Source: Lachnospiraceae bacterium C1.1 (lineage in GTDB: Bacteria > Bacillota > Clostridia > Lachnospirales > Lachnospiraceae). Taken from it: a stretch of DNA of 64,000 bases. Where the stretch lies: contig JAUISW010000001.1 of assembly GCA_030434875.1 (NCBI GenBank), forward strand, positions 62,001 through 126,000. The letters run 5' to 3'. The translations under genes were made by a program, and so were the position numbers. The notes beneath the pieces are model-generated. The model was given only the letters and a program-made list of their open reading frames with translations, was not told where the DNA came from and did not search any database. Of the stretch, positions 575-23,225 are shown in pieces (within the stretch, counting starts at the first letter, position 1; each line of letters starts with the position of its first letter).

Positions 575-590
575 ATGAAACTAGGAATCG
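575..590 (+). repeat. att core copy 1 (E0/E1 boundary)
   Basis: ATGAAACTAGGAATCG, differing by one base from the first 16 bases of ychF (23210-23225). It is preceded by a ychF-like leader (AAAGCCCGTAAAATAAAG and a GGGAGATTATA ribosome site). The reading frame it starts closes after seven codons. Confidence 0.8.
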
Positions 591-720
591 TTATTTGAAG
601 GCCTTTTTCATATATCTCCATATAAAACATTAAATCTATTCAAAACCGCATAAATACTTCATTTGCGGAAATTCCAACTCTGATATAACTTGATAAAGAT
701 TCATATATTTTATAAAAAAA

Positions 721-772
721 TGGCACTCGTGTGGCACTTGGTGGCACTCGATATGGCACTCGATGGCACTCG
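721..772 (+). repeat. Left-arm integrase sites of E1 (5 copies)
   Basis: TGGCACTCG or TGGCACTTG at 721, 732, 742, 754 and 764, spaced 10-12 bp, about one helical turn. The first begins 131 bp after the core end at 590. The period is far too short for a CRISPR array and fits cooperative binding of an integrase N-terminal domain. Confidence 0.7.
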
Positions 773-1075
773 TTTTTGGGTAGTCCTATGAGGGAATACT
801 TCATGCCATTTTTGGTAACTTTCTAGTTTAAAAGTCCCAAATTAGCATTTAACAAATCAATTTTGTAAAAATGGTATTTGTACCTGACTGGAAATATAAC
901 GAATCCATGCTGTTGCTTGGTTTAAATTACGTACGATAGTAGCAATAAACATGGTAAAAACGTACATAAACTTAACTTGACAAGACAACTCTATGATGAT
1001 AAGTTAAAAATATGTATAGAAATGCTATGTAATAGAGTAAAATCAGACAAATAATTAACATCATGGAGCGAGTAT

Positions 1076-1843
1076 ATGAACTTATATTATGAACTGTTAC
1101 AATATCCAATTTTTTCCATGAAAGAAGTTAATGGCCTGTATTCAAGTGAACGGACAGCAAGGATGGCATTAGGAAAGCTTCTGAAGGAAAATATGGTGCT
1201 AAAAATTCGAAATGGGTTATATACGTGTCTTAGCGGTGAAAATGGCGGACCAGTGGCTAACAGATTTCAAATTGCCAGTGCTATCACGCCATCTTCATAT
1301 GTATCACATCATACAGCATTTGAATATTATGGAACTGCCGATCAGGTTTTCTATGAGGTTTATGTTGGCTCAGAGACACGTTTTCACGACTTTGAATTTG
1401 ATGGGTACACTTATCATTATGTAAAAGAACAGATGAAAGAAGGTATAGTTTTTCCGGAATTTGGCGGCGGCGTGAGGATTACAGATAAGGAGCGGACGAT
1501 AACGGACTCCATAAAGGATATGAATCTCATTGCCGGGCTGGAAGAGGTGCTTTCATGTCTCGTGTCCGTGAACAGTATTGATGAAACAAAAATGTTAAAT
1601 TATCTGGCCTTATATGACAATGCCTTTTTATATCAGAAGACAGGTTTTATCTTTAGTGAATATCAGAGGGAACTGGGCATAAGCGATGATTTTATAAAGA
1701 TGTGTAAGGATAGGAGCGGAGATTCAAAACGATATTTGACAACTGGAATAAATGAGCCTGCTTATTCCGGTGAATGGAAGTTGGTCTATCCAAAGAATAT
1801 TAAGAGAATGAAAAACGGAGGGCTAGAAGATGCCGCAATTTAA
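1076..1843 (+). CDS. abiEi: AbiEi-family type IV antitoxin / transcriptional autoregulator
   Basis: The product has 255 residues. The N-terminal 60 read as a winged-helix domain (VNGLYSSERTARMALGKLLKENMVLKIRNGLYTC in pieces), as in AbiEi proteins. The middle carries the family pattern of an HTAFEYYG segment, and KERTITDSIKDM resembles the D-R-T-hhD motif of the C-terminal antitoxin domain. The start ATG 1076 has GGAGCGAG upstream. It overlaps the toxin gene by 14 bp, the usual coupled order with antitoxin first. In known AbiE systems the antitoxin represses its own promoter and counteracts the toxin without stable binding. It is the only module in this window with an intact toxin. Confidence 0.85.
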   Translation: MNLYYELLQYPIFSMKEVNGLYSSERTARMALGKLLKENMVLKIRNGLYTCLSGENGGPVANRFQIASAITPSSYVSHHTAFEYYGTADQVFYEVYVGSETRFHDFEFDGYTYHYVKEQMKEGIVFPEFGGGVRITDKERTITDSIKDMNLIAGLEEVLSCLVSVNSIDETKMLNYLALYDNAFLYQKTGFIFSEYQRELGISDDFIKMCKDRSGDSKRYLTTGINEPAYSGEWKLVYPKNIKRMKNGGLEDAAI

Positions 1844-2768
1844 TAGAAGAGAGCTTGATGTAAGAGCTCGGGAATATGGCTTTAATAGCGATACCTTTGA
1901 GAAGGTTCTTCGATTGAGGACAATTCTTGATTTCTTAAATACGCATGAATATATGCGTGAACATTTGTTGCTTAAGGGCGGAACGGCAATAAATCTGACT
2001 GTTTTTAACCTTCCAAGATTGTCGGTTGATATAGATTTGGATTTTGTTCCAAATCTGACAAGAGAAGAAACGGTGAATGAAAGAGAACGACTTACGGAGA
2101 TCCTGAAGGGATTTATGTCGGAGCAAGGATATTCCCTCTCTGAGGCATCAAGATTCAGTCACAGCCTGGACGCATTCCATTATAATTATGTGAATGCAGC
2201 TGGTAATAGAGATATGATCAAGATAGAGATCAACTATTCACTGAGAACGCACGTGCTATTGCCAGAGGACAGGGCATTAGTGACTGATGCTTTCGGAGAA
2301 CCGATAAAGGTCAGGACGGTCGCTGCAATGGAAATTTTTGCGGCAAAAACCAATGCTCTGATAAGTAGAGCGGCTGCAAGAGATCTGTATGACTTCTGTA
2401 ATATGGCTGATATTAATCTGTTTGCAGGAGAGGAAGACTTGTTTAGAAAATGCATTATTTTCTATGCAACAATCTCGGCAAAAGAAGTGAACAAAACCTT
2501 TGATACATCAGCCATAGACAGTCTTGTCTTTTCAAAAATAAAATCAGATTTGTTCCCGGTTCTGGCTGTGAAGGATAAATTTGACCTGAAAGGAAAGAAG
2601 CAACAAGCAAAGGAGTATATAGCATCGCTTATGAAGCCGACAGCTCAGGAAATGGAATATATGGAAAGGTTTATAGCAAAGGAGTACAAGCCGGAACTGC
2701 TTTTTGAAGATACAGAGATTGTTGAGCGCTTACGGAATCATCCGATGGCACTATGGAAATGTAAATGA
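1830..2768 (+). CDS. abiEii: AbiEii/AbiGii-family nucleotidyltransferase toxin
   Basis: The product has 312 residues, full length for the family (DUF1814). The nucleotidyltransferase core is clear at residues 47-72: LLKGGTAINL supplies the GG(T/S) motif and SVDIDLDF the metal-binding D-x-D. A later conserved segment reads KIEINYS, and AARDLYDF matches the R-D-hhD motif. Family members transfer nucleotides (for some, to tRNA 3' ends) and cause growth arrest or abortive infection. The ribosome site GGAGGGC lies within the antitoxin gene, so translation is probably coupled. A hairpin terminator follows. No lesion is seen, so it is probably functional. Confidence 0.87.
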   Translation: MPQFNRRELDVRAREYGFNSDTFEKVLRLRTILDFLNTHEYMREHLLLKGGTAINLTVFNLPRLSVDIDLDFVPNLTREETVNERERLTEILKGFMSEQGYSLSEASRFSHSLDAFHYNYVNAAGNRDMIKIEINYSLRTHVLLPEDRALVTDAFGEPIKVRTVAAMEIFAAKTNALISRAAARDLYDFCNMADINLFAGEEDLFRKCIIFYATISAKEVNKTFDTSAIDSLVFSKIKSDLFPVLAVKDKFDLKGKKQQAKEYIASLMKPTAQEMEYMERFIAKEYKPELLFEDTEIVERLRNHPMALWKCK

Positions 2769-2797
2769 TTTGTCACTACACGTTTTTACAAATCCGT

Positions 2798-2837
2798 CCT
2801 GACATGGTAATATATATTCGCTGTGTCAGGGCTGTTT
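2798..2837 (+). terminator. Terminator after abiE of E1
   Basis: CCTGACA (2798-2804) pairs with TGTCAGG (2824-2830), followed by GCTGTTTTTA. It separates the toxin gene from the right-arm sites. Confidence 0.5.
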
Positions 2838-2856
2838 TTATGTCGTAATACATAAA

Positions 2857-2880
2857 TGGTACTCGTCGTGGCACTCGGTC
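2857..2880 (+). repeat. Right-arm integrase sites of E1 (2 copies)
   Basis: TGGTACTCG at 2857-2865 and TGGCACTCGGTC at 2869-2880, with a 12-bp period. The end lies 61 bp before the core ATG at 2941, as in E0 and E4. Confidence 0.7.
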
Positions 2881-2940
2881 AAACAAGCTGAGATAACAAA
2901 TGGCTTAAATAAAGCATTTTAAAAAGGAGATACATAAAAA

Positions 2941-2956
2941 ATGAAACTAGGAATCG
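2941..2956 (+). repeat. att core copy 2 (E1/E2 boundary)
   Basis: ATGAAACTAGGAATCG, identical to copies 1 and 4, with an AAAAAGGAGATACAT ribosome-site leader before it. The frame from this ATG closes after eleven codons. Confidence 0.8.
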
Positions 2957-3086
2957 CTCCGAGTTTGGTATTTTGATAAATCTCCTTATAAGCGTATAAA
3001 AACTCTTAAAACCGCATGACATAAGGCTTTGCAGAAAATTCTATTCCTATAAATCTTGATATAGATTCATAAAAATCATAAAAAAA

Positions 3087-3116
3087 TGGCACTCCTGTGG
3101 CACTCGATGGCACCCA
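3087..3116 (+). repeat. Left-arm integrase sites of E2 (3 copies)
   Basis: TGGCACTCC at 3087, TGGCACTCG at 3098 and TGGCACCCA at 3108. The first starts 131 bp after the core end at 2956, exactly as in E1. Confidence 0.65.
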
Positions 3117-3238
3117 TGGGAGTGTTGTCGGAACTTTATTAATTATTCCCGAATCAGCAAAATTGAATATGCAGAAAAACGCTAAGTCGTAAGCTGTTTT
3201 ATGCTGATGGACAAAACTATAGTCATCAGCATACTTTA

Positions 3239-3276
3239 CATTGGTGTATATATAGTGTAAAATGTGTACACCAATG
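3239..3276. promoter_or_regulatory. Probable operator/promoter of the first E2 antitoxin gene
   Basis: CATTGGTGTA (3239-3248) and TACACCAATG (3267-3276) form a perfect 10-bp inverted repeat around an AT-rich TATATATAGTGTAAAAT that could serve as the -10 region. AbiEi antitoxins repress their own promoters through inverted repeats, so this is a likely binding site. Confidence 0.5.
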
Positions 3277-3300
3277 CAAGGTTTGTTTGAGGTGACATAT

Positions 3301-3894
3301 ATGACTAAGTTTGAAGAGATTGATAAATTATTAGAACAAAATGATGGATACTTGTTTTCAAAAGATGTAGAGAAAGCCGGAATCTCCAGAACGTATTTGG
3401 CTAGCTATGTTAAGGAAAGAGGACTGGAGAAAGTATCAAAAGGAATCTATATTTCGCCGGACACATGGGAGGATGAACTGTACATTCTCCAACTTCGTTA
3501 TCCAAAAGTTATTTTCTCCGGAGAAACTGCGCTGTATCTTCATGAAATGATTGATAGAGAATACTCACAGATTACTGTGACGGTCCCACCAAGATTTAAT
3601 CGAACCAGATTATTGTCTGAAGGGGTTGTGATTCGGCAGGAACAGGAGACCAGTTATAATCTTGGAATCACAGAATTACAAACAAATTTTGGAAACACAG
3701 TTAGGGTCTATGATGTGGAAAAGACGGTCTGTGATCTTGTAAAACTGAGAGGCAAAATAGAAGTTCAACATTATCAGACTGCAATTAAGTCATATATGAG
3801 AAGAAAAGACAAGGACTTAACGCGTTTGCTTAAGTATGCAGAAACCTTAAAAATTCGAGATGAAATCATGAAATACATTGAGGTGATGGTATGA
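3301..3894 (+). CDS. AbiEi-family antitoxin, E2 module 1
   Basis: The product has 197 residues from ATG 3301, which has GAGGTG upstream. An earlier ATG at 3262 falls inside the inverted-repeat operator, so I prefer the shorter form. The N-terminal helix-turn-helix (residues about 1-50: ISRTYLASYVKERGLEKVSKGIYIS) is followed by the family core IFSGETALYLHEMIDRE and VYDVEKTVCDLVK. It is about 40% identical by eye to the second E2 antitoxin (4326-4919). The stop overlaps the ATG of the following toxin remnant (ATGA at 3891). The antitoxin is intact although its toxin is lost. Confidence 0.85.
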   Translation: MTKFEEIDKLLEQNDGYLFSKDVEKAGISRTYLASYVKERGLEKVSKGIYISPDTWEDELYILQLRYPKVIFSGETALYLHEMIDREYSQITVTVPPRFNRTRLLSEGVVIRQEQETSYNLGITELQTNFGNTVRVYDVEKTVCDLVKLRGKIEVQHYQTAIKSYMRRKDKDLTRLLKYAETLKIRDEIMKYIEVMV

Positions 3895-3930
3895 TAAAAA
3901 CTGCTATACAGCTAAAAGCAAAGATAAGAA
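3891..3930 (+). pseudogene. Start of an AbiEii toxin gene, cut by an IS200/IS605 remnant
   Basis: ATG 3891 overlaps the antitoxin stop. Only about 13 residues (MIKTAIQLKAKIR) remain. They match the start of the second E2 toxin remnant (MIKSATAVKTKIK). The sequence then passes directly into the C-terminal part of an IS200/IS605 transposase. The catalytic region is absent. Confidence 0.7.
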
Positions 3931-4240
3931 ATATATTTTTGGTGTAGAGGATATTACGTAGATACGGTAGGCAAGAATGCGAAGAAGATACAGGAGTATA
4001 TTCAGAATCAGCTTAAGGAAGATTTGGAATATGATCAGATGACATTGAAGGAGTATATCGACCCGTTTACGGGTGAGCCGGTATTGCAAAAGAAATAAGG
4101 ATGAGCCCAGGGGGCTCACTGAGTAAATGACTTTGCGGCTGGCGAACTTTTCGATTGGTCTTTAGACCCAGTGCCGGTAACAAGCCCTTATAGGGCGTGA
4201 ACAAACCACCGGCTAAGCCGGTGGTTATGATTTGCTTTTT
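3931..4240 (+). mobile_element. IS200/IS605-family element, 3' remnant
   Basis: The frame ending at TAA 4096-4098 reads FWCRGYYVDTVGKN and continues for about 50 residues. I recognise this as the C-terminal end of a Y1 TnpA transposase (the catalytic HUH and tyrosine parts are missing). After it lies a non-coding tail with a perfect hairpin, CCACCGGC/GCCGGTGG at 4206-4224, typical of the structured right end used by these elements. The left end and most of tnpA are gone, so it cannot move alone. It sits inside the first E2 toxin gene. Confidence 0.65.
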
Positions 4241-4313
4241 CGCTACAAAAATATAATTATATAGCGAGAAAGTATTGATTTTCTCGCTACTAGATTCTAA
4301 AATTGTAGCGAAA
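4238..4313. promoter_or_regulatory. Nested inverted repeats before the second E2 antitoxin (operator)
   Basis: Four half-sites are arranged symmetrically: TTTCGCTAC (4238), TAGCGAGAA (4262), TTCTCGCTA (4281) and GTAGCGAAA (4305). The outer pair and the inner pair are each perfect reverse complements, with starts 24, 19 and 24 bp apart. A TATAAT lies at 4252-4257. This fits a two-dimer autorepression site of the antitoxin. Confidence 0.55.
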
Positions 4314-4325
4314 GGGGTTGATTAC

Positions 4326-4919
4326 ATGGATGAAGAAAATATCCTTGATAAGCTAATTGAAGAACAGAACGGATATATTCGACTAATAGATGCTCAAAAT
4401 GAAGGAGTATCAAAGTATACTGTTATGGAGTATGTCCGTAAAAATGAAATGGAAAAACTAGCACCTGGTGTATATATTTCGTCTGATGCTTGGGAAGATA
4501 GATTGTATTTATTGCAGCTTCGTAACAGGAAAATTGTTTTTTCACATGAGTCCGCTTTGTACATGCATAATCTTTCTGATAGAGAACCTTTTTCGCCGGT
4601 CATTACTGTCGGGAGAGGATATAATGCGAAACATCTAAAAGATAAGGGCGTTGTAGTTCATACGGTAAGACCGGAGTGGTTAGAGCTTGGATTAACGCAT
4701 GCACAGACATTCACTGGAAATACAGTACGAATCTATGACAGAGAACGTTGTATTTGCGATATTATCAAGAATAAAAATAAGATGGATATTCAAGTATTTC
4801 AAATGGCTTTGACATCTTATTTTACTGATGGTGATAAAAATATTCATAACCTTATGAAATATTCCGAGATTATGGGGATTTCAGATAAGGTGAGACAATA
4901 TACAGAGGTATTATTATGA
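4326..4919 (+). CDS. AbiEi-family antitoxin, E2 module 2
   Basis: The product has 197 residues from ATG 4326 (AAAGGGG upstream). An in-frame ATG at 4275 lies inside the operator repeats and is less likely. The domain order matches module 1: N-terminal helix-turn-helix (EGVSKYTVMEYVRKNEMEKL) with GVYISSDAWEDRLYLLQLR, then IVFSHESALYMHNLSDRE, then IYDRERCICDIIKN. The length is the same as module 1. The stop overlaps the ATG of the broken toxin (4916). The two modules probably arose by duplication or by stacking of two related cassettes, and differ enough in sequence and operator to be non-cross-regulating. Confidence 0.85.
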   Translation: MDEENILDKLIEEQNGYIRLIDAQNEGVSKYTVMEYVRKNEMEKLAPGVYISSDAWEDRLYLLQLRNRKIVFSHESALYMHNLSDREPFSPVITVGRGYNAKHLKDKGVVVHTVRPEWLELGLTHAQTFTGNTVRIYDRERCICDIIKNKNKMDIQVFQMALTSYFTDGDKNIHNLMKYSEIMGISDKVRQYTEVLL

Positions 4920-5145
4920 TTAAAAGTGCTACAGCCGTAAAGACAAAGATAAAAAAAAGGCAGGTGGAAATAGTGATAAATCCCAGATAATGCTGAGAAT
5001 ATATCTGATGGAACGACTTTTGGAGAGAGTTTCTTTATCAAAGTATAGAGATAACTTTGTGCTAAAGGGCGGCCTTCTAGTGTCTTCGTTAGTTGGCGTG
5101 GATATGCGTTCAACTATCTTGATAGGCAATTGTGTTTTTTCTTAG
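4916..5145 (+). pseudogene. AbiEii toxin gene, frameshifted and truncated
   Basis: ATG 4916 reads MIKSATAVKTKIK and then hits a stop at 4979. The +1 frame continues the protein (LRIYLMERLLERVSLSKYRDN, FVLKGGLLVSSLVGVDMRST) to a stop at 5143. The GG motif of the nucleotidyltransferase is present, but the sequence departs from the family just before the D-x-D residues, so no active enzyme can be made. Frameshift plus deletion, following an intact antitoxin. Confidence 0.75.
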
Positions 5146-5246
5146 TGCAGATATGCATTTTACACATATAAAGTTTACGTTAAATCGGCTCTTTGCTAAT
5201 TGTTTTTGGAGGTGGTATGATGATATTATTAATGTGAGGAGTAAGT

Positions 5247-6098
5247 ATGGCTAAGAAAAAGGTTACAGAGGATGAATCCTCTAGAAATGGGCTCAGTGCT
5301 CAAATTAACGTTGAGCTTGATAAAGCGATTGATGATTTAACTTTATTTGATGATGACCTTATGAGCAAGGTTTTTGATGGAAATATTGAAGCCACAGAAC
5401 TTTTATTGCAGATTATCCTTGAGCGTAAGGATGTCAGGGTCGTTAGAGTTAAAGGTCAGGTTGAACTTAAGAGCCCATATCTAGGTGGAAGAAATATCAA
5501 GCTTGATATTGATGCTATAGATGGAAATGGTATAGAGTTTGATGTAGAGGTTCAGCGTAATACTAAGGGTTCCAATATTAGACGGCCAAGATTTCATCAA
5601 AGCATGATGGATTCAAGGCTATTAAAGAAAAATCAGGAATTTAAGGAACTGAAAGACACTTATGTTATTTTCATTTGTCGGCATGACAAATTTAAGGAAA
5701 ACAAGCCGATATATCATGTAGATAAGATTATCAGAGAAACAGGCAAGACTTTTGATGATGGAGCTCATATAATTTACGTTAATGGTAAGTATAGGGGCGA
5801 AGATGATTTCGGTAAGTTAGCACATGACTTTAATTGCAAGAAGGCAGACAATATTTATTTCAAGCCTCTCGCTGATGGAGTCAGACATTTCAAAGAAACT
5901 GAGAAAGGACGTGATGCTATGTGTGAATCATTTACAAAGTTAGCTGATAAAGTTGCTGATGAGCGAGCTGAACAGACAACAATAAATAATATCAAACTAA
6001 TGATGAAGAACATGAAGTGTTCTTTAGAGGATGCTCTTAATGCTCTTGAAATTAAGGGAAAAGAGCGTGCTATCATAGCAAAGCAGCTCCAAAAGTAA
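5247..6098 (+). CDS. Rpn-family PD-(D/E)XK nuclease (recombination-promoting nuclease / putative transposase)
   Basis: The product has 283 residues with GAGGAG before ATG 5247. The middle part carries the Rpn/PF12784 signature: KSPYLGGRNIKLDIDAIDGNG followed by FDVEVQ, which supply the D and E-x-Q of the nuclease core, then RRPRFHQSMMDSRLLKKNQEF and VIFICRHDKF. The C-terminal 60 residues are helical (KLADKVADERAEQTT, AIIAKQLQK), as usual. E. coli Rpn proteins are DNA endonucleases that stimulate RecA-independent recombination. Copies are often numerous in Lachnospiraceae and associated with mobile regions. The gene is intact and sits between toxin debris and the E2/E3 junction. Confidence 0.85.
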   Translation: MAKKKVTEDESSRNGLSAQINVELDKAIDDLTLFDDDLMSKVFDGNIEATELLLQIILERKDVRVVRVKGQVELKSPYLGGRNIKLDIDAIDGNGIEFDVEVQRNTKGSNIRRPRFHQSMMDSRLLKKNQEFKELKDTYVIFICRHDKFKENKPIYHVDKIIRETGKTFDDGAHIIYVNGKYRGEDDFGKLAHDFNCKKADNIYFKPLADGVRHFKETEKGRDAMCESFTKLADKVADERAEQTTINNIKLMMKNMKCSLEDALNALEIKGKERAIIAKQLQK

Positions 6099-6125
6099 AA
6101 CTTAATTATAGCTACAAAGTACATC

Positions 6126-6157
6126 AAAGCAGTGGACTTATGTCAGCTGCTTTTTTC
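6126..6157 (+). terminator. Terminator after the Rpn gene
   Basis: AAAGCAG (6126-6132) and CTGCTTT (6147-6153) form a stem leading into a T run. Confidence 0.5.
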
Positions 6158-6329
6158 GTGCAATTATTTAAAACGATATAATTCTATTGTTTTTATGGTT
6201 GGAGGAAGCTGCTATATGAAATTAGTTTATGTGAAGCTTCGCATAAACCAAAAAAAGCCAAGTGAGCGTGGAAAGACATATAGCGAAAAGCCCATAAAAT
6301 AAAGGTTTTTAAAGGAGATATAAGATAAT

Positions 6330-6345
6330 ATTAAACTAGGAATCG
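6330..6345 (+). repeat. att core copy 3 (E2/E3 boundary)
   Basis: ATTAAACTAGGAATCG: identical to copies 1, 2 and 4 except that the start codon is ATT. The leader AAAGCCCATAAAATAAAG and TAAAGGAGATATAA are retained. Confidence 0.75.
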
Positions 6346-6463
6346 CGCGGCTCCACCATTTTCACGTTTTGTCACGCTAGGTTCCAAAAGCTTATATTTC
6401 CTCACTTTTAAAAAATTCTTTTCTTACATATCGTCACGTAAAATCACGTGAAGTGGTTTTAAA

Positions 6464-6492
6464 TGGCACATGAATGGCAAAAAAATGGCACA
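6464..6492 (+). repeat. Left-arm integrase sites of E3 (3 copies)
   Basis: TGGCACA at 6464, TGGCAAA at 6475 and TGGCACA at 6486, period 11 bp. The first begins 119 bp after the core end at 6345, the same as in E4 and 12 bp less than in E1 and E2. Confidence 0.6.
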
Positions 6493-6572
6493 TATTAATC
6501 AATTTGGAAACGTTTCATGCCAAATATAATAGGTAAACCTAGGAGGGGTAGTCACACCCAGTTTTTTTACAT

Positions 6573-6611
6573 AGGACTGTTATTTCGAAAGAGATAGCTG
6601 TTCTTTTTTTA
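6573..6611 (+). terminator. T-tailed hairpin near the left end of E3
   Basis: AGGACTGTTATTTC (6573-6586) pairs, with G-T wobbles, with GAGATAGCTGTTCT (6591-6604) and runs into seven T. It would stop transcription entering E3 from E2, and resembles the hairpin at the other end of E3. Confidence 0.5.
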
Positions 6612-6950
6612 TCAGCACTTTTGAATTGTGTATTTCTTACTGGATGAGGATTCTGTATAATTGAAGACAGCGAAAATCGTTAAGGAAAGAATCGAAGATG
6701 ATGCAAACGAAAAAGCAGCATTAAAATTTTCAATAACTGCCCTTTCGTTTGCATCTATTTCGATTTTTCCTGGTTGAACAAAGCGCGTCCGGGTGGCTGT
6801 TATATATGGGATTTCAATATTTCCACTCTTTTGTCGACCAGTATATCATATGTTGTGAAAAATGGATATCAAATGTGCAGAAATCCATTTTTATGCAACA
6901 CAAATAAGCCTCCCTTTAGGAAGCTTTCTGAGATATTCAGTTGTAGCCCT

Positions 6951-15140: not shown

Positions 15141-15174
15141 AGCAGTTATCTCAAATTGAGATAGCTGCTTTTTA
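15141..15174 (+). terminator. Terminator near the right end of E3
   Basis: AGCAGTTATCTC (15141-15152) pairs with GAGATAGCTGCT (15158-15169), followed by TTTTA. It closes the oxidoreductase transcript and resembles the hairpin at 6573-6611. Confidence 0.65.
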
Positions 15175-15329
15175 TACTTGCTTTGCTAAAGCGCGTTGCA
15201 CTGTCTTTTCGATACCCAGGGTAGAGAAAAAAATAGAAATGTAGTAATATACAAAAGGCTATGACCAAAAGTGTCATAAATATTGAAAATACAGTAAAAT
15301 CAATACTTTTAGAAGGAGATATATAGAAA

Positions 15330-15345
15330 ATGAAACTAGGAATCG
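15330..15345 (+). repeat. att core copy 4 (E3/E4 boundary)
   Basis: ATGAAACTAGGAATCG with AGAAGGAGATATATAG before it. The frame from this ATG stays open for 42 codons, with the first five codons of ychF fused to unrelated sequence. Confidence 0.8.
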
Positions 15346-15463
15346 GCGTCAGTGCCGGATTTCACGTTTCTCTTCAAAAGTTCTCAAACCTTGTTATTTC
15401 GGAATTCCCACATATCATAAATTTCACACAAATTCCCATATCTTCACAAAAATTATAAAATAT

Positions 15464-15492
15464 TGGCGTGGCGATGGCGTAAGTACTGGCGT
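15464..15492 (+). repeat. Left-arm integrase sites of E4 (4 copies)
   Basis: TGGCGT at 15464, TGGCGA at 15469, TGGCGT at 15475 and TGGCGT at 15487. The first starts 119 bp after the core end at 15345, as in E3. Confidence 0.6.
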
Positions 15493-16848: not shown

Positions 16849-16999
16849 AGAATATAAAGAGCAGTGGAAAGAGATTATTGAGACTGTAGCTGCCGAAGAA
16901 CATCGTACGACTCAGATGGTTGAAAAAGATACTATTCAGTCGATGATTTTGTCTGGTATTTCTCAAAGTGATCTCCCTTTTGTATTTAAGGGAGGAACT
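16835..16999 (+). pseudogene. AbiEii toxin, N-terminal part (split by a RIT element)
   Basis: ATG 16835 starts MSWYREYKEQWKEII and runs to LPFVFKGGT at base 16999, the first half of the nucleotidyltransferase motif. Translation then enters RIT end sequence and stops at 17030 after about ten foreign residues. The remaining part of the protein resumes at 20552. The target GGAACT is present on both sides. Confidence 0.8.
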
Positions 17000-17091
17000 A
17001 ATACCGAGTTTTTCATAATGCCGAGTTTTTGATTTTTCACATGGAAATATGTCTTCTTTCTATGTATTTATCGGCATAAATGCTTATCATG

Positions 17092-17134
17092 AACCTATCA
17101 GTTGAAATAGGAAACTGATAGGTTTTTATTTTTG
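17092..17134 (+). terminator. Hairpin terminator at the left end of the RIT element
   Basis: AACCTATCAG (17092-17101) and CTGATAGGTT (17115-17124) form a perfect 10-bp stem followed by T-rich sequence, just upstream of the first recombinase ribosome site. It would shield the recombinases from outside transcription. Confidence 0.7.
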
Positions 17135-17157
17135 TTTTCAGAAAGGAGACGCTGCTT

Positions 17158-18423
17158 ATGACAAACACAATCTTAAAACAGGCCGCAGACTGCTTCTATG
17201 AGAAAATCTCTCAAAAAAAATATGCTGAGGCCACTCTACGAAACTACCGTCAAAAAATCCATGCTCTTCTACGTTTTTGTGATTCTATGGGGTTTGAATC
17301 CTTTAATTATGAAGAAGCAGAGACATATTCTCAATGGCTCAACGAAAGGGTTGAACGAGGTGAGATACAGAACAAATATGCCGGTTTTCTCAAAAGCATT
17401 GCTTTGTCCTTTGCTGATTTTAATTCTGTTCCGTCGGATATGCAGGATGATTATACTTTTGTTCCACACAAGACCTTCGTATCTTCGAAAAACACCCTGA
17501 ATGCAGACAGTCGAAACGTCTACGAGGAGTTTCATCATTACCTCAGTGATATATATGCCCCGGCCAGTTTTCGTGGGTACCTTGTGATTGTTTCACCATT
17601 GCTCCATTATCTTGAGGATAATTCCATTCCTCTTAATGAAATCACCCCTCAGATCATTAGAGAATACCTTGTGTTTATTGCTCCTAACCGGCCGAATAGC
17701 ATGGGGGATGTTGTTTTTGGAATTCGTGTGTTTTTAAGATTCCTAAGCGAACGAGGCTATATAAGCTGGTCAGTAGATATGATGTCATTTCGTATGGCGC
17801 CGTCGAGAAAAAAAGTACCTGTTGCGTATTCGGATAGCGAAATTCAACGAATGGTTGAAAGCATTGATACAACACACGATACCGGCAAGCGTGATTATGC
17901 GATTATTGTTATGTCACTGTTTACAGGGCTTAGGAGTGTAGATATCAGAAACCTTAAACTCTCAGATATAGACTGGGAAAAGGATTCGATTCATATCATC
18001 CAGCATAAGACGAATCGCGAGCTTATTATACCTCTGCTTACGGCCGTTGGAAACGCAACAGTTGACTACATTCTGAACGGCAGACCTGAATCTAAGGAAC
18101 CTTACGTTTTTTTATCCCACGGCAGAGGGAGTAGAGGAGAACCTATGGGGGCAGGAACTATTATCAACCGAATGCGTATCTATCTGAAAAAATCTGGCAT
18201 TAAAAAATGCGGTTTTGACGGAAAGGATTTTCATGCGCTCAGAAAAACATTTGCCACTAACCTGCTTGTATCCGGAACGCCACTGGAGTCAGTAGCAAGT
18301 GCCCTTGGTGATGCAGGCGTACAGGCCGCTAAACCCTATCTTGCACTGGATGATGATAATCTACGCTTGTGCTGCCCTGAGAAGATGGCACATCCTTGTA
18401 GGAAGGAGGGATTAGATGCCTAA
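17158..18423 (+). CDS. RIT tyrosine recombinase A
   Basis: The product has 421 residues, with AAAGGAG before ATG 17158. The N-terminal core-binding part (residues about 1-230) includes ATLRNYRQKIHALLRFC. In the catalytic part, FTGLRSVDIRNL holds the first Arg and FHALRKTFATNLL the H-x-x-R. The usual LGH reads LGD (ALGDAGVQAAKPYLALD), with the Tyr following. The His-to-Asp change is notable for a nucleophile-side residue but may be tolerated. It overlaps the next gene by 8 bp. Confidence 0.85.
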   Translation: MTNTILKQAADCFYEKISQKKYAEATLRNYRQKIHALLRFCDSMGFESFNYEEAETYSQWLNERVERGEIQNKYAGFLKSIALSFADFNSVPSDMQDDYTFVPHKTFVSSKNTLNADSRNVYEEFHHYLSDIYAPASFRGYLVIVSPLLHYLEDNSIPLNEITPQIIREYLVFIAPNRPNSMGDVVFGIRVFLRFLSERGYISWSVDMMSFRMAPSRKKVPVAYSDSEIQRMVESIDTTHDTGKRDYAIIVMSLFTGLRSVDIRNLKLSDIDWEKDSIHIIQHKTNRELIIPLLTAVGNATVDYILNGRPESKEPYVFLSHGRGSRGEPMGAGTIINRMRIYLKKSGIKKCGFDGKDFHALRKTFATNLLVSGTPLESVASALGDAGVQAAKPYLALDDDNLRLCCPEKMAHPCRKEGLDA

Positions 18424-19375
18424 GAAAAAGTTCTATGGTTTCCTCAGCAGCTTTGCGGTACAACTCAATGAGTTTATTGAATATAAGCGCAGCCTTGGAT
18501 ATGTGGAAGATTCTTATTTTCACCTAAACAGCTTTGATGAGTTCTGTGCTGACAAGTATCCTGATGCGGATGAACTGACAGCAAATATCGTCACTGAATG
18601 GTGCGCTATAAGCGACAAAGGGATCATCAACCGCTGTAGTCAGATACGGGAATTCGCTCGGTATCTTCTTTCAATGGGTAAGCAGGCTTATATGTATCCG
18701 GCAACAGCAATCCCCAAAAGGAATGACGGTCTGCCTTATATCATTTCGCAAGCTGAGCAGTCACGTTTCTTTGATGCGACAGACCAGAGGGTTTATTCAA
18801 AGAAGTCACCGATTATGGAATACACTGCACCTGTTGTATTTCGTCTTATGCTTGGATGCGGGCTTCGACCCAGAGAGGTTGTATGCCTTTATCGAAGGCA
18901 TTTTGATTTCAACAACGGAACGATATATATAGAGGATTCCAAAAACCATCGTGACCGACGTATTGCAGTTTCCAGAGATCTGATGGAACTTTGCAGACGT
19001 TTTGACTATATAGCGGACGGATTTTTCCCTGAACGTGCGTGTTTTTTCCCTAACAAAGCCGGCAATCCCCTTAGCTATCCATCACTGGTTTATCTTTTCC
19101 AGAAGTCTTGGGATCTCTCAGGTAATGACACAGGTGAAGGACGCCCATCCTTATATTCTTTCCGCTTTACCTTTGCTACAGAAACCCTGATGCGCTGGAT
19201 TGAAGAAGGAAGGGATATAGAAGCTATGATTCCATATCTGAGCGCATATATGGGGCATGTAAAATTTAAGGACACCTACTACTATATCAAACTCCTGCCC
19301 GACAGGATTGCAAAGATGAAGTTTATGAGCGTCAATGGTATAATCCCGGAGGTGAATCGAAATGAATGGTGGTAA
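18416..19375 (+). CDS. RIT tyrosine recombinase B
   Basis: The product has 319 residues, with GGAGGGA before ATG 18416. The N-terminal SAM-like region has LNEFIEYKRSLGYVEDS. In the catalytic domain, LGCGLRPREVVCLYR carries the first Arg and HRDRRIAVS the beta-hairpin Lys/Arg region. The box usually reading H-x-x-R appears as LYSFRFTFATE, where the His is replaced but the Arg is kept. YMGHVKFKDTYYYIKL gives the His and Tyr. It overlaps RitC by 14 bp, so the three proteins are likely translated together and may act as a complex. Confidence 0.85.
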   Translation: MPKKKFYGFLSSFAVQLNEFIEYKRSLGYVEDSYFHLNSFDEFCADKYPDADELTANIVTEWCAISDKGIINRCSQIREFARYLLSMGKQAYMYPATAIPKRNDGLPYIISQAEQSRFFDATDQRVYSKKSPIMEYTAPVVFRLMLGCGLRPREVVCLYRRHFDFNNGTIYIEDSKNHRDRRIAVSRDLMELCRRFDYIADGFFPERACFFPNKAGNPLSYPSLVYLFQKSWDLSGNDTGEGRPSLYSFRFTFATETLMRWIEEGRDIEAMIPYLSAYMGHVKFKDTYYYIKLLPDRIAKMKFMSVNGIIPEVNRNEWW

Positions 19376-20405
19376 GAATAATGATTTCTGGACGCTTCTT
19401 GGTCAATTCTTTCAGTTGTATCCAAAGCAGCGTAACATAAGCGAGAACACAGTTCTCAACTGGCGTTATACATGGAATATATTTCTGTCATGGCTGTTCA
19501 ATGTCAAAGGCATCATCCCAGAAAAGCTGGCGATTGACACGGTCACATCTCAAATGTTGATGGAATTTCTTGATGACATGGTCAGAGATAGAAACTGGTC
19601 ACCGCAAACGAGAAATGAGCGACTTTCCATGATAAGGAGTTTCTACCAGTATGCTGCTTCTGTGGAACCGCTGTATTATAACAAGGTTAAGGAACTGGGT
19701 CGGATTAAAAAGGCTAAATGCGTGGATTCATCTGGAGTGATTGACTACATCCCCAAAGAAGCCATGACTGTGTTATTATCAATCCCGGATCCGACGACAC
19801 GGCTTGGATGCCGTGATATGTTCTATATGTCCCTCGCATATGACATAGCTGCAAGAACAGCAGAAATGACATCCATGAAAGTAAAGGATCTTAATCCGGA
19901 CAAAAAGGTGGTCACGCTGACTGGAAAGGGGCGAAAGCAAAGGTTGGTGCCTGTATCACCCCAAACTATTGATATGTACAGAAGCTATATCCGTTCTTTC
20001 CATACATCATATGATCCAGAGGATTATTTATTTTACACTGTACACAATGGGGTTCATACAAAAATGTCATCGGATACGGTCGCACGCTTCTTAAAAATCC
20101 ATTCGGAAGAAGCACGGAAGAAATGTACGGAAATGCCTGAAAAAGTCCATCCACATCAGGCTTTCCGCACTTCAAGGGCAATGCACTTGCTTCAGAGTGA
20201 TGCACCATTGGCAACTGTTGCACTCATCCTTGGGCATTCGGATCCAATCACTACCGTTAAACATTATGCTGCGGCAGATACTGAGATGAAACGAAAGCTG
20301 ATGGAGCGTGCCTCAAAAGAAATGCTCCCTGATTTTAATGATACGGAAGCTATCTGGAAAAATGACAAGGATATCATTGGAAGATTATATCTTGGCAGAA
20401 AGTAG
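19362..20405 (+). CDS. RIT tyrosine recombinase C
   Basis: The product has 347 residues, with GGAGGTG before ATG 19362. The core-binding domain includes ENTVLNWRYTWNIFLSWLF and WSPQTRNERLSMIRSFYQY. The catalytic residues are readable: DIAARTAEMTSMK (Arg), GKGRKQRLVPV (Lys), HPHQAFRTSRAMHL (H-x-x-R) and LILGHSDPITTVKHYAAA (His, Tyr). It is the member of the trio with the most canonical active site. A hairpin terminator at 20454-20490 follows. Confidence 0.87.
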   Translation: MNGGKNNDFWTLLGQFFQLYPKQRNISENTVLNWRYTWNIFLSWLFNVKGIIPEKLAIDTVTSQMLMEFLDDMVRDRNWSPQTRNERLSMIRSFYQYAASVEPLYYNKVKELGRIKKAKCVDSSGVIDYIPKEAMTVLLSIPDPTTRLGCRDMFYMSLAYDIAARTAEMTSMKVKDLNPDKKVVTLTGKGRKQRLVPVSPQTIDMYRSYIRSFHTSYDPEDYLFYTVHNGVHTKMSSDTVARFLKIHSEEARKKCTEMPEKVHPHQAFRTSRAMHLLQSDAPLATVALILGHSDPITTVKHYAAADTEMKRKLMERASKEMLPDFNDTEAIWKNDKDIIGRLYLGRK

Positions 20406-20453
20406 AAGTTGATTTAAAATGGGCTTCAGATTCTGTCGTTGTTAATGCCGAGA

Positions 20454-20490
20454 ATAAAGGCTGGGATTTAACAGATTCCAGCCTTTATGA
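20454..20490 (+). terminator. Terminator after the RIT recombinase genes
   Basis: ATAAAGGCTGG (20454-20464) pairs with CCAGCCTTTAT (20478-20488). The T tail is weak on the plus strand, but the stem is perfect. Confidence 0.55.
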
Positions 20491-20523
20491 TAAAAATATC
20501 GGCATTTATAAAAACTCGGTATT

Positions 20524-20557
20524 AGTTCCTAAATGCCGATATCGGCATTTAGGAACT
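20524..20557. repeat. 34-bp perfect palindrome at the right end of the RIT element
   Basis: AGTTCC, then TAAATGCCGAT and its complement ATCGGCATTTA, then GGAACT. The whole 34 bp is self-complementary. Partial copies of the inner motif (ATGCCGA) occur inside both ends (17018, 17071, 20445, 20499), so it is probably the recombinase binding unit. Confidence 0.8.
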
Positions 20558-21301
20558 TCTTTATCAAAGGCGTATGGACTCATTGATAGGTTTTCAGAAG
20601 ATATCGATTTGTCTATGAATCGCAAGCCAACTGAAGGTGAAAAAAAGCAGACAAAGAATTTGATTCTGAACTTAGCGGAGAATTTAGGACTGATTTTAAC
20701 TAATCCAGAGGATATACAATCTCGCCATAGCTACAATAAATATGTGTTCAAGTACGAATCATTTTTTAGTGAAATACCTTTGGAGCTGATTATTGAAACG
20801 AGTTTTTATCAGGACGTTTATCCGGCAGAGAATCACGATGTTTATAGCTTTGTGGGAAGATTCTGCGAAAAGAATGGAATTACACTTCCTATTCCATTTG
20901 ATGAAGCAAAGATAAGTATGCAGGTGCAGTCCTTGGGACGAACACTTATTGATAAGGTATTTGCTGTTTGCGATTATCGTATTCAAAATATGATGGATCG
21001 AGATTCGAGACATTTATATGATATTGCGAAGCTGCTTCCTGAGGTTGAGATAACACCTGAATTGGATGCTTTGATTGATAGGGTGCGCGACGATCGTATG
21101 AAGTCTAAGAACAATCCATCAGCGCAGCTTGAATATAATATTCCAGATATGCTTAAGGAAATTATTTCAAGTCGATTCTATGAATCAGATTATAACAATA
21201 TCACGAAAAAGCTTTTATATGAGGATGCGTCATATAATGATGCAATTGAAAAAGGAATAGCACTAGTAGCAGATATGGATATTTTTGAATATAAAAAGTA
21301 G
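20552..21301 (+). pseudogene. AbiEii toxin, C-terminal part (split by a RIT element)
   Basis: The frame resumes at GGAACT and reads TSLSKAYGLIDRFSEDIDLS, giving the Ser of GGTS and the D-x-D metal ligands. It continues about 230 residues to YKK and a stop at 21299-21301. Motifs include ELIIETSFYQD and RDSRHLYDIAKLL (the R-D-hhD motif). Joined to 16835-16999, the two parts make a normal 300-residue AbiEii with no other lesion, so precise RIT excision would restore the toxin. An internal ATG at 20609 has no clear ribosome site. Confidence 0.85.
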
Positions 21302-21364
21302 AAGCTACTTTGGTCGAGAGAATATAAGAAAGTAACTTTTGGTCCATTGGACCAGAAGTGATGT

Positions 21365-21392
21365 AAGACAGGAGAAATCCTGTCTTATTTTT
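21365..21392 (+). terminator. Terminator after the E4 abiE module
   Basis: AAGACAGGA (21365-21373), loop GAAA, TCCTGTCTT (21378-21386), then ATTTTTT: a strong intrinsic terminator. Confidence 0.85.
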
Positions 21393-21462
21393 TGCGCAAA
21401 ATTTCTGCAGATTCTGATCATATGTGTCCCATATGTATTTTGAACGGGTGGAAATAAGTAAT

Positions 21463-21719
21463 TTTTCGTAATCGGTTCTGACTCGTTCCAAATAGTAGAT
21501 GAAGGGATAAAGAAAAAATTATGTAGGTTTAGTAATGGGTGATTTTTCAACCCAAATGTATGTTGAGAGAAAAAATCGGTAAATTTTGCCCTTGATTTAG
21601 TAATGGGCGGAAAACCACCCCAAATGTAATGTGAAGGATTTAAGAGAAGTTTTGAAAAGAATTCTTCATTTTTCTAGTAATGAGTCACTTACTTAACCAA
21701 ATGAATTATGAGTGGAAAG
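21463..21719 (+). repeat. Iterated regulatory repeats upstream of the E4 integrase region
   Basis: Three clear units begin TAGTAATG at 21530, 21598 and 21675. Each contains a small hairpin (GGGT/ACCC or GGGC/CCC) and a following CCAAATG(T)A-TGTGA-like block. A fourth, degenerate unit lies at about 21463-21505 (CCAAATAGTAGATGAAGGGA). Unit spacing is 68-77 bp. No coding capacity. Possible binding sites for an excisionase or regulator. Confidence 0.55.
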
Positions 21720-21736
21720 AACAGGAGGTTTAATTA

Positions 21737-21844
21737 ATGAATATTGCAGAAACATTAAAGCATCTTGGAAATCATTGGGAATTATATTGCTTGGTAAAGC
21801 GTAAGGAGTTTGAAAGGTTTATCTCAGAAAATATTGAAACCTAA
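21737..21844 (+). CDS. Small protein of 35 residues upstream of the integrase
   Basis: ATG 21737 is preceded by AGGAGG with ideal spacing. The product is MNIAETLKHLGNHWELYCLV plus KRKEFERFISENIET, soluble with a basic middle. The position between the iterated repeats and the integrase is where integrative elements often encode an excisionase or regulator, but I do not recognise the family, and it could instead be the head of a truncated gene. The ribosome site is the main evidence that it is translated. Confidence 0.45.
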   Translation: MNIAETLKHLGNHWELYCLVKRKEFERFISENIET

Positions 21845-21895
21845 ACGGATGCTTGATATCAGCGGATTTCAAGCATGTCAAAAAATGAAACAACA

Positions 21896-21924
21896 TTGTA
21901 AAGAGCCCCTGATTAGTGTATAAT
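21896..21924 (+). promoter_or_regulatory. Promoter of the E4 integrase
   Basis: TTGTAA (21896-21901), a 17-bp spacer, TATAAT (21919-21924). AGCCCCT (21904-21910) in the spacer can pair with AGGGGCT (21939-21945) downstream of the start point, and the latter is followed by TCTTTA. This may be an operator or a terminator for read-through from upstream. Confidence 0.65.
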
Positions 21925-21970
21925 ACATTAGTTGATTTAGGGGCTTCTTTAGCTTAGAAAGGAGCCTTTA

Positions 21971-23101
21971 ATGGGAAAAGATCTCAAAGGAAAGGAGCTT
22001 GGAGAAGGAATTGTTCAACGAGCCAATGGTACATACCAAGCGAGATTCGTTGATAAATTCGGTAAAAGAAGACAAAAGAAATCCAAGAAACTACAAGAAG
22101 TAAGACAGTGGCTCGCTGATGCTACATATATTGATAAACACAGTGATTTGGATCAGGCTGCGGATATGCTCGTAGATGCTTGGTTTGAATATTGGATAGG
22201 AATCAAGAAGCAGACAGTGAGACCTAACACGGTCAGAAACTATTCGGAACGATATGAACGAAATATCAAGAGCGTGATTGGAAACAAACTTCTGACAGAC
22301 GTTAAACCGGTGCATTGCCAGAAGATTTTTTCTAATATGGCGGAGGAAGGTTATAAGACCACTACCATATATCAGACTAGAATAGCTCTTTATAACATGT
22401 TTGAATTTGCAAAGGAGAATGATGTTCTTATCAATAATCCATGCAAGAAATCAGTAAAGAGCGATATGGGAAAGCCGTCTGAGAAGAAAGAAGCTCTTAC
22501 GATAGATGTTCAGAAGAAGTTTTTAGAAGCTGTGGTTGGTTACAGCTATGAGAATCAGTATCGCTTCGTATTACAGACCGGACTTCGTACAGGAGAGCTT
22601 GCGGGACTTAAGTGGAGTGATATCGACTTCAAAAATCGTACTATGAAGATTGAGAGGACGATGGAGTATCGCTATAGCGTGGGTGAATGGAGAGTTGGCC
22701 CACCTAAGAGTAAATCTGGTTATCGTACAATTCCGCTTACAGATGAAGTAATCCGCATTCTTGAGAATCAAAAAGCAAAAAACAAGAGTTTAAAGCTCGT
22801 TCCGATTGAATGGAGCGATACTGTCTTTCTATGCAGAAAGGGTACACCGGTTAAGAACAGCACTTATGACACTGGCTTGTTTAAGTATTGCGACCGTATA
22901 GGCATTCCGAGATTTTCAATGCATGTACTAAGACATACTTTTGCTACCAGATGCATTGAAGGTGGAATGAAACCCAAGACTCTGCAGAAGATTTTAGGTC
23001 ATTCCAATATCGGAATCACAATGAATCTATACGTACATATTACGGAAGATGAAAAACACAGAGAGATTGATCTCGTGGCTGACGCGTTAAAAGTGATATA
23101 A
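21971..23101 (+). CDS. int: Tyrosine integrase of E4 (Tn916/phage type, AP2-like N-terminus)
   Basis: The product has 376 residues, with AAAGGAG before ATG 21971. Residues 1-60 (GIVQRANGTYQARFVDKFGKRRQKKSKK) form the AP2-like arm-binding domain of Tn916-type integrases. The SAM-like core-binding domain spans about 65-165. Catalytic residues: TGLRTGELAGLKW (Arg), KSKSGYRTIPL (Lys region), HVLRHTFATRC (H-x-x-R), ILGHSNIGITMNLYVH (His and Tyr). The stop codon is 25 bp from the right-arm repeats and 108 bp from the ychF start, the usual placement of int beside its attachment site. It is the obvious candidate for driving integration at the ychF core and possibly mobilising E1-E3 in trans. Confidence 0.92.
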   Translation: MGKDLKGKELGEGIVQRANGTYQARFVDKFGKRRQKKSKKLQEVRQWLADATYIDKHSDLDQAADMLVDAWFEYWIGIKKQTVRPNTVRNYSERYERNIKSVIGNKLLTDVKPVHCQKIFSNMAEEGYKTTTIYQTRIALYNMFEFAKENDVLINNPCKKSVKSDMGKPSEKKEALTIDVQKKFLEAVVGYSYENQYRFVLQTGLRTGELAGLKWSDIDFKNRTMKIERTMEYRYSVGEWRVGPPKSKSGYRTIPLTDEVIRILENQKAKNKSLKLVPIEWSDTVFLCRKGTPVKNSTYDTGLFKYCDRIGIPRFSMHVLRHTFATRCIEGGMKPKTLQKILGHSNIGITMNLYVHITEDEKHREIDLVADALKVI

Positions 23102-23125
23102 AACTTAATGCGAAATCAAAACAGA

Positions 23126-23149
23126 TGGTGCCCGATGTGGTGCCCGGTC
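23126..23149 (+). repeat. Right-arm integrase sites of E4 (2 copies)
   Basis: TGGTGCCCG at 23126-23134 and TGGTGCCCGGTC at 23138-23149, period 12 bp. The end is 61 bp before the ychF ATG, matching E0 and E1 exactly while the middle bases differ. Confidence 0.7.
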
Positions 23150-23209
23150 GAAATCGCAAAACGCGGAAAGCCCGTAAAATAAAGACTTTTTAAGGAGATA
23201 TAAAACATT

Positions 23210-23225
23210 ATGAAATTAGGAATCG
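23210..23225 (+). repeat. att core copy 5, the 5' end of ychF
   Basis: ATGAAATTAGGAATCG, one base (T for C at position 8) different from copies 1, 2 and 4. The leader AAAGCCCGTAAAATAAAG and TTAAGGAGATATAAAAC before it matches the other junctions. This is probably the host half of the attachment site. Confidence 0.8.

What the first reader, a model, noticed from the sequence alone, without database searches (positions are those of the whole stretch)
575..23225. Tandem array of integrative elements stacked at the 5' end of ychF
A 16-bp core equal or nearly equal to the first 16 bases of ychF occurs five times in the same orientation at 575, 2941, 6330, 15330 and 23210. Each copy is preceded by a ychF-like leader (AAAGCCC-TAAAATAAAG and AAGGAGATATA, with variations). 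The intervals are discrete cassettes with unrelated cargo, and the copy next to ychF is adjacent to an integrase gene. This is what repeated site-specific insertion into one attachment site would leave. I do not know of a described accretion array at ychF; that part is from memory, not a search.
Basis: partly seen in the sequence, partly recalled or inferred. Interest (0 to 1): 0.92.

Follow-up and report, generated by a model that had tools for sequence, protein, structure and literature searches.

The report
Mobile-element stack at ychF's start codon
A bacterium of a gut and rumen family carries at least five different DNA elements inserted one after another at the very first bases of the housekeeping gene ychF, and related inserting enzymes use the same spot in many relatives while recognising different flanking signals.

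Summary
All five 16-bp cores are present; a sixth lies 3.9 kb left of the first, outside the window, so at least five units are stacked before ychF. The exact core occurs nowhere else in the 4.23-Mb genome. The cause is site-specific integration by a Tn916-like tyrosine integrase: 63 of its 79 best loci in GTDB genomes have ychF directly downstream. One 9,339-bp element, identical outside the core, sits at ychF in Coprococcus comes and Blautia luti. A same-species genome keeps the leftmost boundary with different content behind it. Strand exchange is inferred within ychF nt 9-16, so insertion replaces ychF's leader and first codons. Accretion arrays are known (ICESt1, Dehalococcoides ssrA), as is a pneumococcal prophage beside ychF: a variant of a known kind. 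Possibly new: integrases about 93% alike in the catalytic part share this core but use different arm repeats at fixed distances, and the separating residues lie almost only in the N-terminal domain. The array's one such integrase has right arms found in no other member.

The parts
1..574 (+). Right part of element E1 (E1 starts at contig 58633, outside the window); int-less right end with arm pair at 491 and 503
   Evidence: Arms TGGTACTCG on both ends of E1; right end up to 94% identical to int-bearing right ends, the match starting in the last codons of int, so int was probably deleted; no integrase relative in E1
575..590 (+). att core 2 (boundary E1/E2)
575..2940 (+). Element E2, 2366 bp, AbiEi/AbiEii cargo, no integrase; left arms 721-772, right arms 2857 and 2869
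   Evidence: 95% identical to Butyrivibrio L117 over offsets 281-2366, ending exactly at a core; arms; AbiE; no integrase relative
1076..1843 (+). AbiEi-type antitoxin (255 aa)
   Evidence: PADLOC AbiEi E 3e-119; no Pfam match
1830..2768 (+). AbiEii-type nucleotidyltransferase toxin (312 aa)
   Evidence: PF08843 4e-25, PADLOC AbiEii
2941..2956 (+). att core 3 (boundary E2/E3)
2941..6329 (+). Element E3, 3389 bp: two AbiEi-type regulators (3262, 4275) and an Rpn/PDDEXK protein (5247); left arms TGGCACTC, right arms not found
   Evidence: its last stretch plus the core, 75 bp, is 99% identical to the ychF leader and start of G026
6330..6345 (+). att core 4 (ATT variant; boundary E3/E4)
6330..15329 (+). 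Interval E4, 9000 bp: IS91 transposase plus XerD-like recombinase on the minus strand, peptidase, protease and reductase genes, some truncated; no right arms
   Evidence: a 114-bp stretch ending 5 bp before the core is 93% identical to the ychF leader of another genus, L180
15330..15345 (+). att core 5 (boundary E4/E5)
15330..23209 (+). Interval E5, 7880 bp, with the only close integrase of this family in the array; left arms TGGCGTA (15475, 15487), right arms TGGTGCCC, each at the usual distance but of unlike sequence
   Evidence: left 228 bp 91% to the start of another unit in Butyrivibrio L129
17158..20405 (+). Three consecutive tyrosine recombinases (Recombinase-in-Trio type, name recalled) between an AbiEi and an AbiEii gene
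   Evidence: PF00589 in all three
21971..23101 (+). Integrase (376 aa): weak Tn916-type N-domain, SAM-like, tyrosine recombinase domain
   Evidence: 63 of 79 related loci at ychF
23126..23146 (+). Right arm-type repeats TGGTGCCCG x2, 12 bp apart
23156..23209 (+). Leader supplied to ychF by the element (AAAGCCCGTAAAATAAAG, AAGGAGATATA)
   Evidence: positions -43 to -27 partly conserved over 61 int-adjacent loci
23210..23225 (+). att core 6 = first 16 bases of ychF
23210..24307 (+). ychF (365 aa)
   Evidence: PF06071, PF01926

Best explanation
The region is a tandem accretion array at one chromosomal attachment site, the first 16 bases of ychF. A tyrosine integrase of the Tn916-Int type joins a circular element to this core. 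Strand exchange lies inside codons 3-6, so each insertion leaves ychF's old leader, start codon and first codons at the left end and gives ychF a new leader, ribosome site and first codons carried on the element's right end. The core is rebuilt at both ends, so another element can insert again. E1-E4 have lost, or never had, a close integrase of this family; only E5, next to ychF, has one. SHOWN by sequence: the cores, arm repeats, right-end sharing between species, the identical element in two genera, and different contents behind one left boundary within the species. INFERRED: the exchange point, order of insertion, circles, and that E1-E4 can no longer be moved by E5's integrase because their arms differ from its TGGTGCCC arms.
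For: Cores. ychF start 78-324 bp after the end of the integrase match, same strand, in 61 of 79 loci by tblastn (the 324 of L113 comes from a partial match), plus L167 and L168. Shared left and right arms in 8 of 8 complete int-bearing elements read (L116, L117b, L122, L123, L125, L129b, L139, L145) at fixed distances, and in int-less E1; E2 shares TGGCACTC. Right repeats 12 bp apart in 53 of 56 right ends with a repeat; 59 of 62 loci had an open integrase frame and were examined. L122 and L123: 9339 bp, one mismatch, inside the core. E2 in Butyrivibrio ends exactly at a core. Same-species G023. Genus: repeat pairs of at least 7/8 before ychF in 19 of 28 genomes, shuffle rate 1-7.5%. Family sample: 19 of 71 look occupied, 11 with int found by tblastn and 8 by eye; 52 look empty.
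Against: E4 has no right arms and E5 has unlike arms at its two ends, so these two intervals are not clean single insertions. L129a pairs the same left-end type with unlike right arms. No circular form or empty site of this very strain was seen. The leader at 15330 resembles a ychF leader of another genus (107 of 119 positions) and is not explained. No relaxase or conjugation gene was seen among the ORFs scanned, so the route between cells is unknown.
Confidence: 0.9

Rival explanations
1. The cores are copies of a ychF leader spread by homologous recombination or small duplications, without an integrase; the cargo arrived by other means.
For: Leaders are mosaic: one leader type occurs with several arm types (L092 and L102, G003), and the E4 right end carries a leader like that of another genus's ychF.
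Against: Arm repeats at fixed places at both ends, an integrase beside ychF in 63 of 79 loci, an identical element with unlike flanks in two genera.
Confidence: 0.05
2. The members are phage satellites (as at pneumococcal ychF) rather than conjugative-type or orphan integrative elements.
For: A pneumococcal element beside ychF, with int next to the gene, has no structural genes seen and is called a prophage or satellite prophage (PMC6375853, PMC10383233, passages). The 9.3-kb element in L122 has RepA_N and DnaC-like (IstB family) genes and no relaxase among the seven ORFs scanned.
Against: No capsid or packaging gene among the ORFs scanned in the array or in L122, though satellites may lack these; integrase matches in the phage collection are only 27-33% identical (10 of 11 records listed).
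Confidence: 0.2
3. The integrase of E5 mobilises the int-less members in trans, so they are live mobilisable elements.
For: One int-less right-end type occurs seven times in six genomes, at ychF in two (L315, L316) and before internal cores in the rest, with arms from different classes side by side; no integrase relative lies in the stretches before them that I hold, 1.7-8.9 kb each.
Against: E5's right arm TGGTGCCCG occurs nowhere else in 124 kb around the array; arms and N-domain co-vary.
Confidence: 0.2

Closest known systems
Tandem accretion of ICESt1-related elements and CIMEs (Pavlovic 2004, Bellanger 2011; seen only as cited in passages and reference lists of PMC5357655 and PMC3146451)
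   Same: Elements stacked at one att site as direct repeats; members without integrase
   Different: There the 3' end of a gene (recalled); here the start codon of ychF, and the array's integrase shares arms with no other member found
Dehalococcoides ssrA genomic islands (PMC3146451, passages read)
   Same: Many islands at one site bounded by a short direct repeat; 16 with and 15 without an integration module
   Different: Serine recombinase and the 3' end of tmRNA; here a tyrosine integrase and a protein gene's 5' end
Pneumococcal prophage/satellite beside ychF (PMC6375853, PMC10383233, PMC8637289; passages read)
   Same: Integrase gene at the ychF-side end; insertion changes the predicted ychF promoter and its expression (PMC6375853)
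   Different: Single element; 14-26 bp core in the intergenic region, not in the coding start; no array in the passages read
Tn916/Tn1549 integrases
   Same: Domain layout; catalytic part matches a solved Int (6emz, E 5e-30; that it is Tn1549's is recalled); N-domain aligns weakly to Tn916 Int 1b69/1tn9 (the Tn916 name is from Pfam PF02920, and recall)
   Different: Tn916 inserts at many sites (PMC12084037, start of abstract in the listing); this family is site-specific
Streptococcal IMEs in accretion (PMC5357655, passages)
   Same: Tandems at shared genes whose integrases need not be related (21-69% identity)
   Different: Mostly 3' ends (rpsI, rpmG, rplL); here, across genomes, integrases about 93% alike in the catalytic part use one core with different arms

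Membership tests
Tandem accretion array | Several units in one orientation, each bounded by the att core | tested here: met
Tandem accretion array | Unit boundaries coincide with the core in another genome | tested here: met
   E2 vs L117, right boundary; its left 280 bp do not match there
CIME (cis-mobilisable element) | Functional att sites, no integration or transfer genes | tested here: inconclusive
   E1 and E2 have arms at the usual distances and no int; E3 has lost right arms; E4 lacks right arms; function not testable
CIME (cis-mobilisable element) | Mobilised by a resident related element | not testable with these tools
   Arm classes differ from E5's, which argues against it here
ICE / IME | Relaxase or conjugation genes | tested here: not met
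   None in Pfam scans of 19 larger ORFs and the integrase of E2-E5, of three E1 ORFs and of seven ORFs of L122's element; smaller ORFs were not scanned
Tn916 integrase family | Tn916 N-terminal DNA-binding domain and tyrosine recombinase domain | tested here: inconclusive
   PF00589 9e-32; PF02920 4.7e-5 but 23.7 bits, under its cut-off of 27
Phage satellite | Packaging-related genes or proven helper dependence | tested here: inconclusive
   None seen among the ORFs scanned, but satellites can lack them and dependence cannot be tested here

The most novel reading that the evidence does not exclude
ychF is a shared docking site at which competing integrases have kept one core but diversified their arm sites into compatibility groups. 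N-domain residues form a readable code for the arm sequence: 23 and 35 separate all three close classes (F/T for TGGTACTC, C/S for TGGCACTC, Q/Q for TGGTGCCC), and 15, 17, 34 and 37 separate one class from the other two. Int-less satellites answer with mixed arms that several integrases could read. Relatives use the same trick at the start codons of other translation genes (fmt, tsaD), taking over leader and first codons of the host gene.
Probability: 0.35. Interest if true: 0.82.

Novelty: new variant of a known kind. Interest (0 to 1): 0.63.

Why it matters
One conserved gene's start codon acts as an integration hotspot across Lachnospiraceae and some related families, and moves toxin-antitoxin and other cargo, in one case between genera of human gut bacteria. 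Each insertion rewrites the leader of a translation-linked ATPase, so occupancy may change ychF expression, as reported for pneumococcus. The set of near-identical integrases with different arm sites is a natural experiment for how arm specificity is encoded and why it diversifies, and for how stacked elements might avoid moving each other.

Tried and rejected
Chance duplicates of a ribosome-site leader: rejected by genome counts, arms and the cross-genus element. Reading the leftmost leader (58633) and the 15330 leader as one native ychF leader: dropped, only 76 of 144 aligned positions agree; 15330 instead resembles G086's ychF leader, 107 of 119. A promoter between int and ychF: none found by the consensus scan; its 3 hits over 2 kb are fewer than in shuffles (mean 5.6); the one upstream of int is TTGTAA-17-TATAAT at 21896. 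Left arms of TGGTGCCCG type for E5: absent from 124 kb. Avoidance of like arms between neighbours in an array: not tested; junctions are few, and E2 and E3 both have TGGCACTC left arms, so not claimed. A leader hairpin common to all right ends: not general (mean z -0.99 in 81 occupied, -0.30 in 52 empty leaders); only one subclass has a covarying stem. Print: searches pairing ychF with integrase/attachment site, integrative/insertion site/Lachnospiraceae, satellite prophage, genomic island/integrase, prophage/pneumococc/switch (in 31 and 79 not every term was required, and 79 listed 10 of 387) brought only the pneumococcal cases as integration at ychF. Of the other papers holding ychF I opened three at the word: two lists of marker genes for trees and a staphylococcal prophage gene list (PMC13046425, PMC4289293, PMC8460829); the rest were seen as listings. 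PMC5357655 and PMC4701971 do not hold the word. A search for arrays in Lachnospiraceae listed 12 of 61 papers, none that looked to be on this family. Subscription papers are not held.
Full report
WHAT IS THERE. The five cores are real. The window is G000:C1:62001-126000 of a 4.23-Mb genome; the exact core pattern occurs five times, all in the array. A looser pattern finds a sixth array core at C1:58633, ATGAAACTAGGAATTG with an AAGGAGATATA leader; of that pattern's ten places in the genome, six are in the array and four elsewhere. The stack thus has at least five intervals: E1 3942, E2 2366, E3 3389, E4 9000 and E5 7880 bp.

ANATOMY. Eight complete int-bearing elements from other genomes show the rule: core; repeats beginning 145-148 and 157-159 bp on; cargo; integrase; repeats 83-85 and 71-73 bp before the next core; leader; core. 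The repeat motif is shared between left and right in 8 of 8, but differs between element types. Right repeats are 12 bp apart in 53 of 56 right ends that have one; 59 of 62 loci had an open integrase frame and were examined. In the array, E1 has TGGTACTCG at both ends. E2 has TGGCACTCG on the left, and one TGGTACTCG plus one TGGCACTCG on the right. E3 keeps left TGGCACTC and has lost its right repeats. E4 has TGGCACA on the left and none on the right. E5 has TGGCGTA on the left and TGGTGCCCG on the right, each at the usual distance. E4 and E5 are therefore probably recombined or decayed; L129a shows the same left-end type with unlike right repeats. E1's right end begins within the last codons of an integrase, so its integrase was probably deleted. 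With a panel of 49 integrases, E1-E3 have no match and E4 only its 25-28% minus-strand recombinase.

THE INTEGRASE AND ITS SITE. The integrase has tyrosine recombinase and SAM-like domains and a sub-threshold Tn916 N-domain match. In GTDB genome contigs 259 stretches encode relatives; the best 80 were kept, giving 79 loci. A ychF start lies 78-324 bp after the integrase match on the same strand in 61 of 79. Two more (L167, L168) also run into ychF (Pfam for L168 only), L127 ends inside a core, and L142 is followed by an internal core. Two run into fmt and one into tsaD (Pfam); 11 are unresolved. Because the query is this integrase and only the best were kept, the ychF share is biased upward. 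In a class-wide sample, 9 of 293 genomes, the window's own included, have a relative at E 1e-60; of the other eight, six have ychF next (G260, the rest; search), one another ORF and one none close by.

MOBILITY AND EXCHANGE POINT. Coprococcus comes (L122) and Blautia luti (L123) carry the same 9,339-bp element with one mismatch, at core base 15, and unlike left flanks. At the right end, bases 7 and 9 of ychF differ from the left core in both hosts, base 12 differs between hosts, and at the left end base 15 differs. I infer exchange between about nt 9 and 16. Both strains share a name prefix (MSK.16), so they may come from one donor. A copy of 9,338 bp sits in G240 with a flank like L122's.

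COMPARATIVE OCCUPANCY. Genus: 48 genomes searched, 33 with a ychF hit below E 1e-80. For 28 the DNA before the gene is readable; 19 of 28 show a right-repeat pair of at least 7 of 8 (shuffles 1-7.5%), and a few others have remnants by eye (G003, G005, G007, G030). Left out: G023, G028, G043 (5' end or upstream missing), G042, G047 (fragments). Contigs break just before ychF: 24 of 30 within 2.5 kb against 2 of 30 on the other side, and upstream is the shorter side in 30 of 30 (G000, G042 and G047 left out; in G023 and G028 the break is inside the gene). This fits a locus that varies between strains but is indirect. Family: of 250 genomes searched I read 71, those in the cut list with ychF on the plus strand: 11 have an integrase within 600 bp, 8 more look occupied by eye and 52 look empty. 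Right ends of internal cores in G000 sit directly at ychF elsewhere: core 575 like G041 (92% over 121 bp), 6330 like G026 (99% over 75) and 15330 like G029 (96% over 52). G023, the same species, shares the left flank, the leftmost core with changed first bases and the first 344 bp of E1, then differs until an E2-like piece of 187 bp at the contig end. E2 is 95% identical to a Butyrivibrio stretch (offsets 281-2366) that ends exactly at a core. Further internal cores, hence stacks or possible stacks, occur in L117, L125, L129, L142, L223 and in G002, G004 and G011 of the genus; the last three sit on contigs other than that of ychF.

ARM CODE. Among 18 integrases at least 85% identical to the window's in the catalytic part, three repeat classes occur (10 TGGTACTC, 4 TGGCACTC, 4 TGGTGCCC). 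Catalytic identity between classes averages 92.6-94.2%. Columns that separate at least one pair of classes: 11 of 62 in the N-domain, 2 of 314 elsewhere (Fisher 7e-8). Columns 23 and 35 separate all three; label shuffles never gave such an N-domain column (500 shuffles). Over 45 of 49 integrases the partial correlation of repeat difference with N-domain difference, given catalytic difference, is 0.32, 0 of 1000 permutations as high. Shared ancestry inflates both tests: the nearest relative by catalytic part has the same repeats in 14 of 18. At larger catalytic distance (over 0.25) same-arm pairs are not closer in the N-domain than other pairs (11 pairs). The N-domain aligns with that of Tn916 Int (1b69/1tn9) only at E 0.33.

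INT-LESS UNITS. One right-end type without integrase occurs seven times in six genomes, at ychF in two. Its two repeats are unlike each other in six of seven copies; the seventh keeps only one. No integrase relative lies in the 1.7-8.9 kb before them that I hold. A search of 397 family genomes with E2's end found full-length copies only in G000, G219 and G111. Mixed arms could be drift after loss of the integrase, or use of several integrases; I cannot tell.

EFFECT ON ychF. Each insertion removes the native leader. No promoter-like site was found between int and ychF, so transcription may come from int or from a site the scan misses. In pneumococcus, insertion beside ychF goes with lower ychF mRNA (PMC6375853, abstract and passages). 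Whether this holds here is untested.

VERDICT. A real accretion array at an integration site in the coding start of ychF. Array and mechanism are of a known kind; the site, its breadth and the arm diversification make it a new variant.

Noticed in passing
window:17158-20405: Three consecutive tyrosine recombinases lie between an AbiEi gene (16231) and an AbiEii gene that matches its best PADLOC profile only from position 78 (20609), as if a recombinase trio had broken the AbiEii gene.
   Followed up: partly
L148, L151, L158 downstream of the integrase: Relatives of the integrase (51-57% identical) sit directly before the start codons of fmt (two loci) and tsaD (one), so start-codon targeting may be a habit of the family.
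   Followed up: partly
leaders of L139, L141, L144, L145, L146, L156, L161, L179, L194, L222, L228, L237, L238, L252, L253, L265, L267 (alignment A1): A 9-pair stem just before an unusual ribosome site (GGATAGGT) before ychF: 94.8% of cells pair, 18 cells with double changes against 6.8 in shuffles, slid controls at most 59.5%; but the number of pairs with double changes (4) is no higher than in shuffles (231 of 500). Possible attenuator or dyad.
   Followed up: partly
G005:C26 upstream of ychF (L020): The sequence around an integrase promoter and start lies right before ychF with the integrase gone, as if a deletion had fused them.
   Followed up: no
L302 and L303 (G029), minus strand: Left ends of E2-like elements at places other than ychF, one with core ATGAAAATAGGAATCG, suggest use of secondary sites.
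   Followed up: no
window:21500-21720: Three imperfect repeats around TAGTAATGGG...CCAAATG upstream of the integrase, possibly a control region (read by eye).
   Followed up: no
window:6951-8977: IS91-family transposase next to a XerD-like recombinase on the minus strand inside E4.
   Followed up: no
G004:C29 and C33 (L040, L269): The same TGTAACACC right end lies before ychF and before another element's left end (TGTGGCC repeats), each with 292 bases to the contig end: an array or mixed strains.
   Followed up: partly
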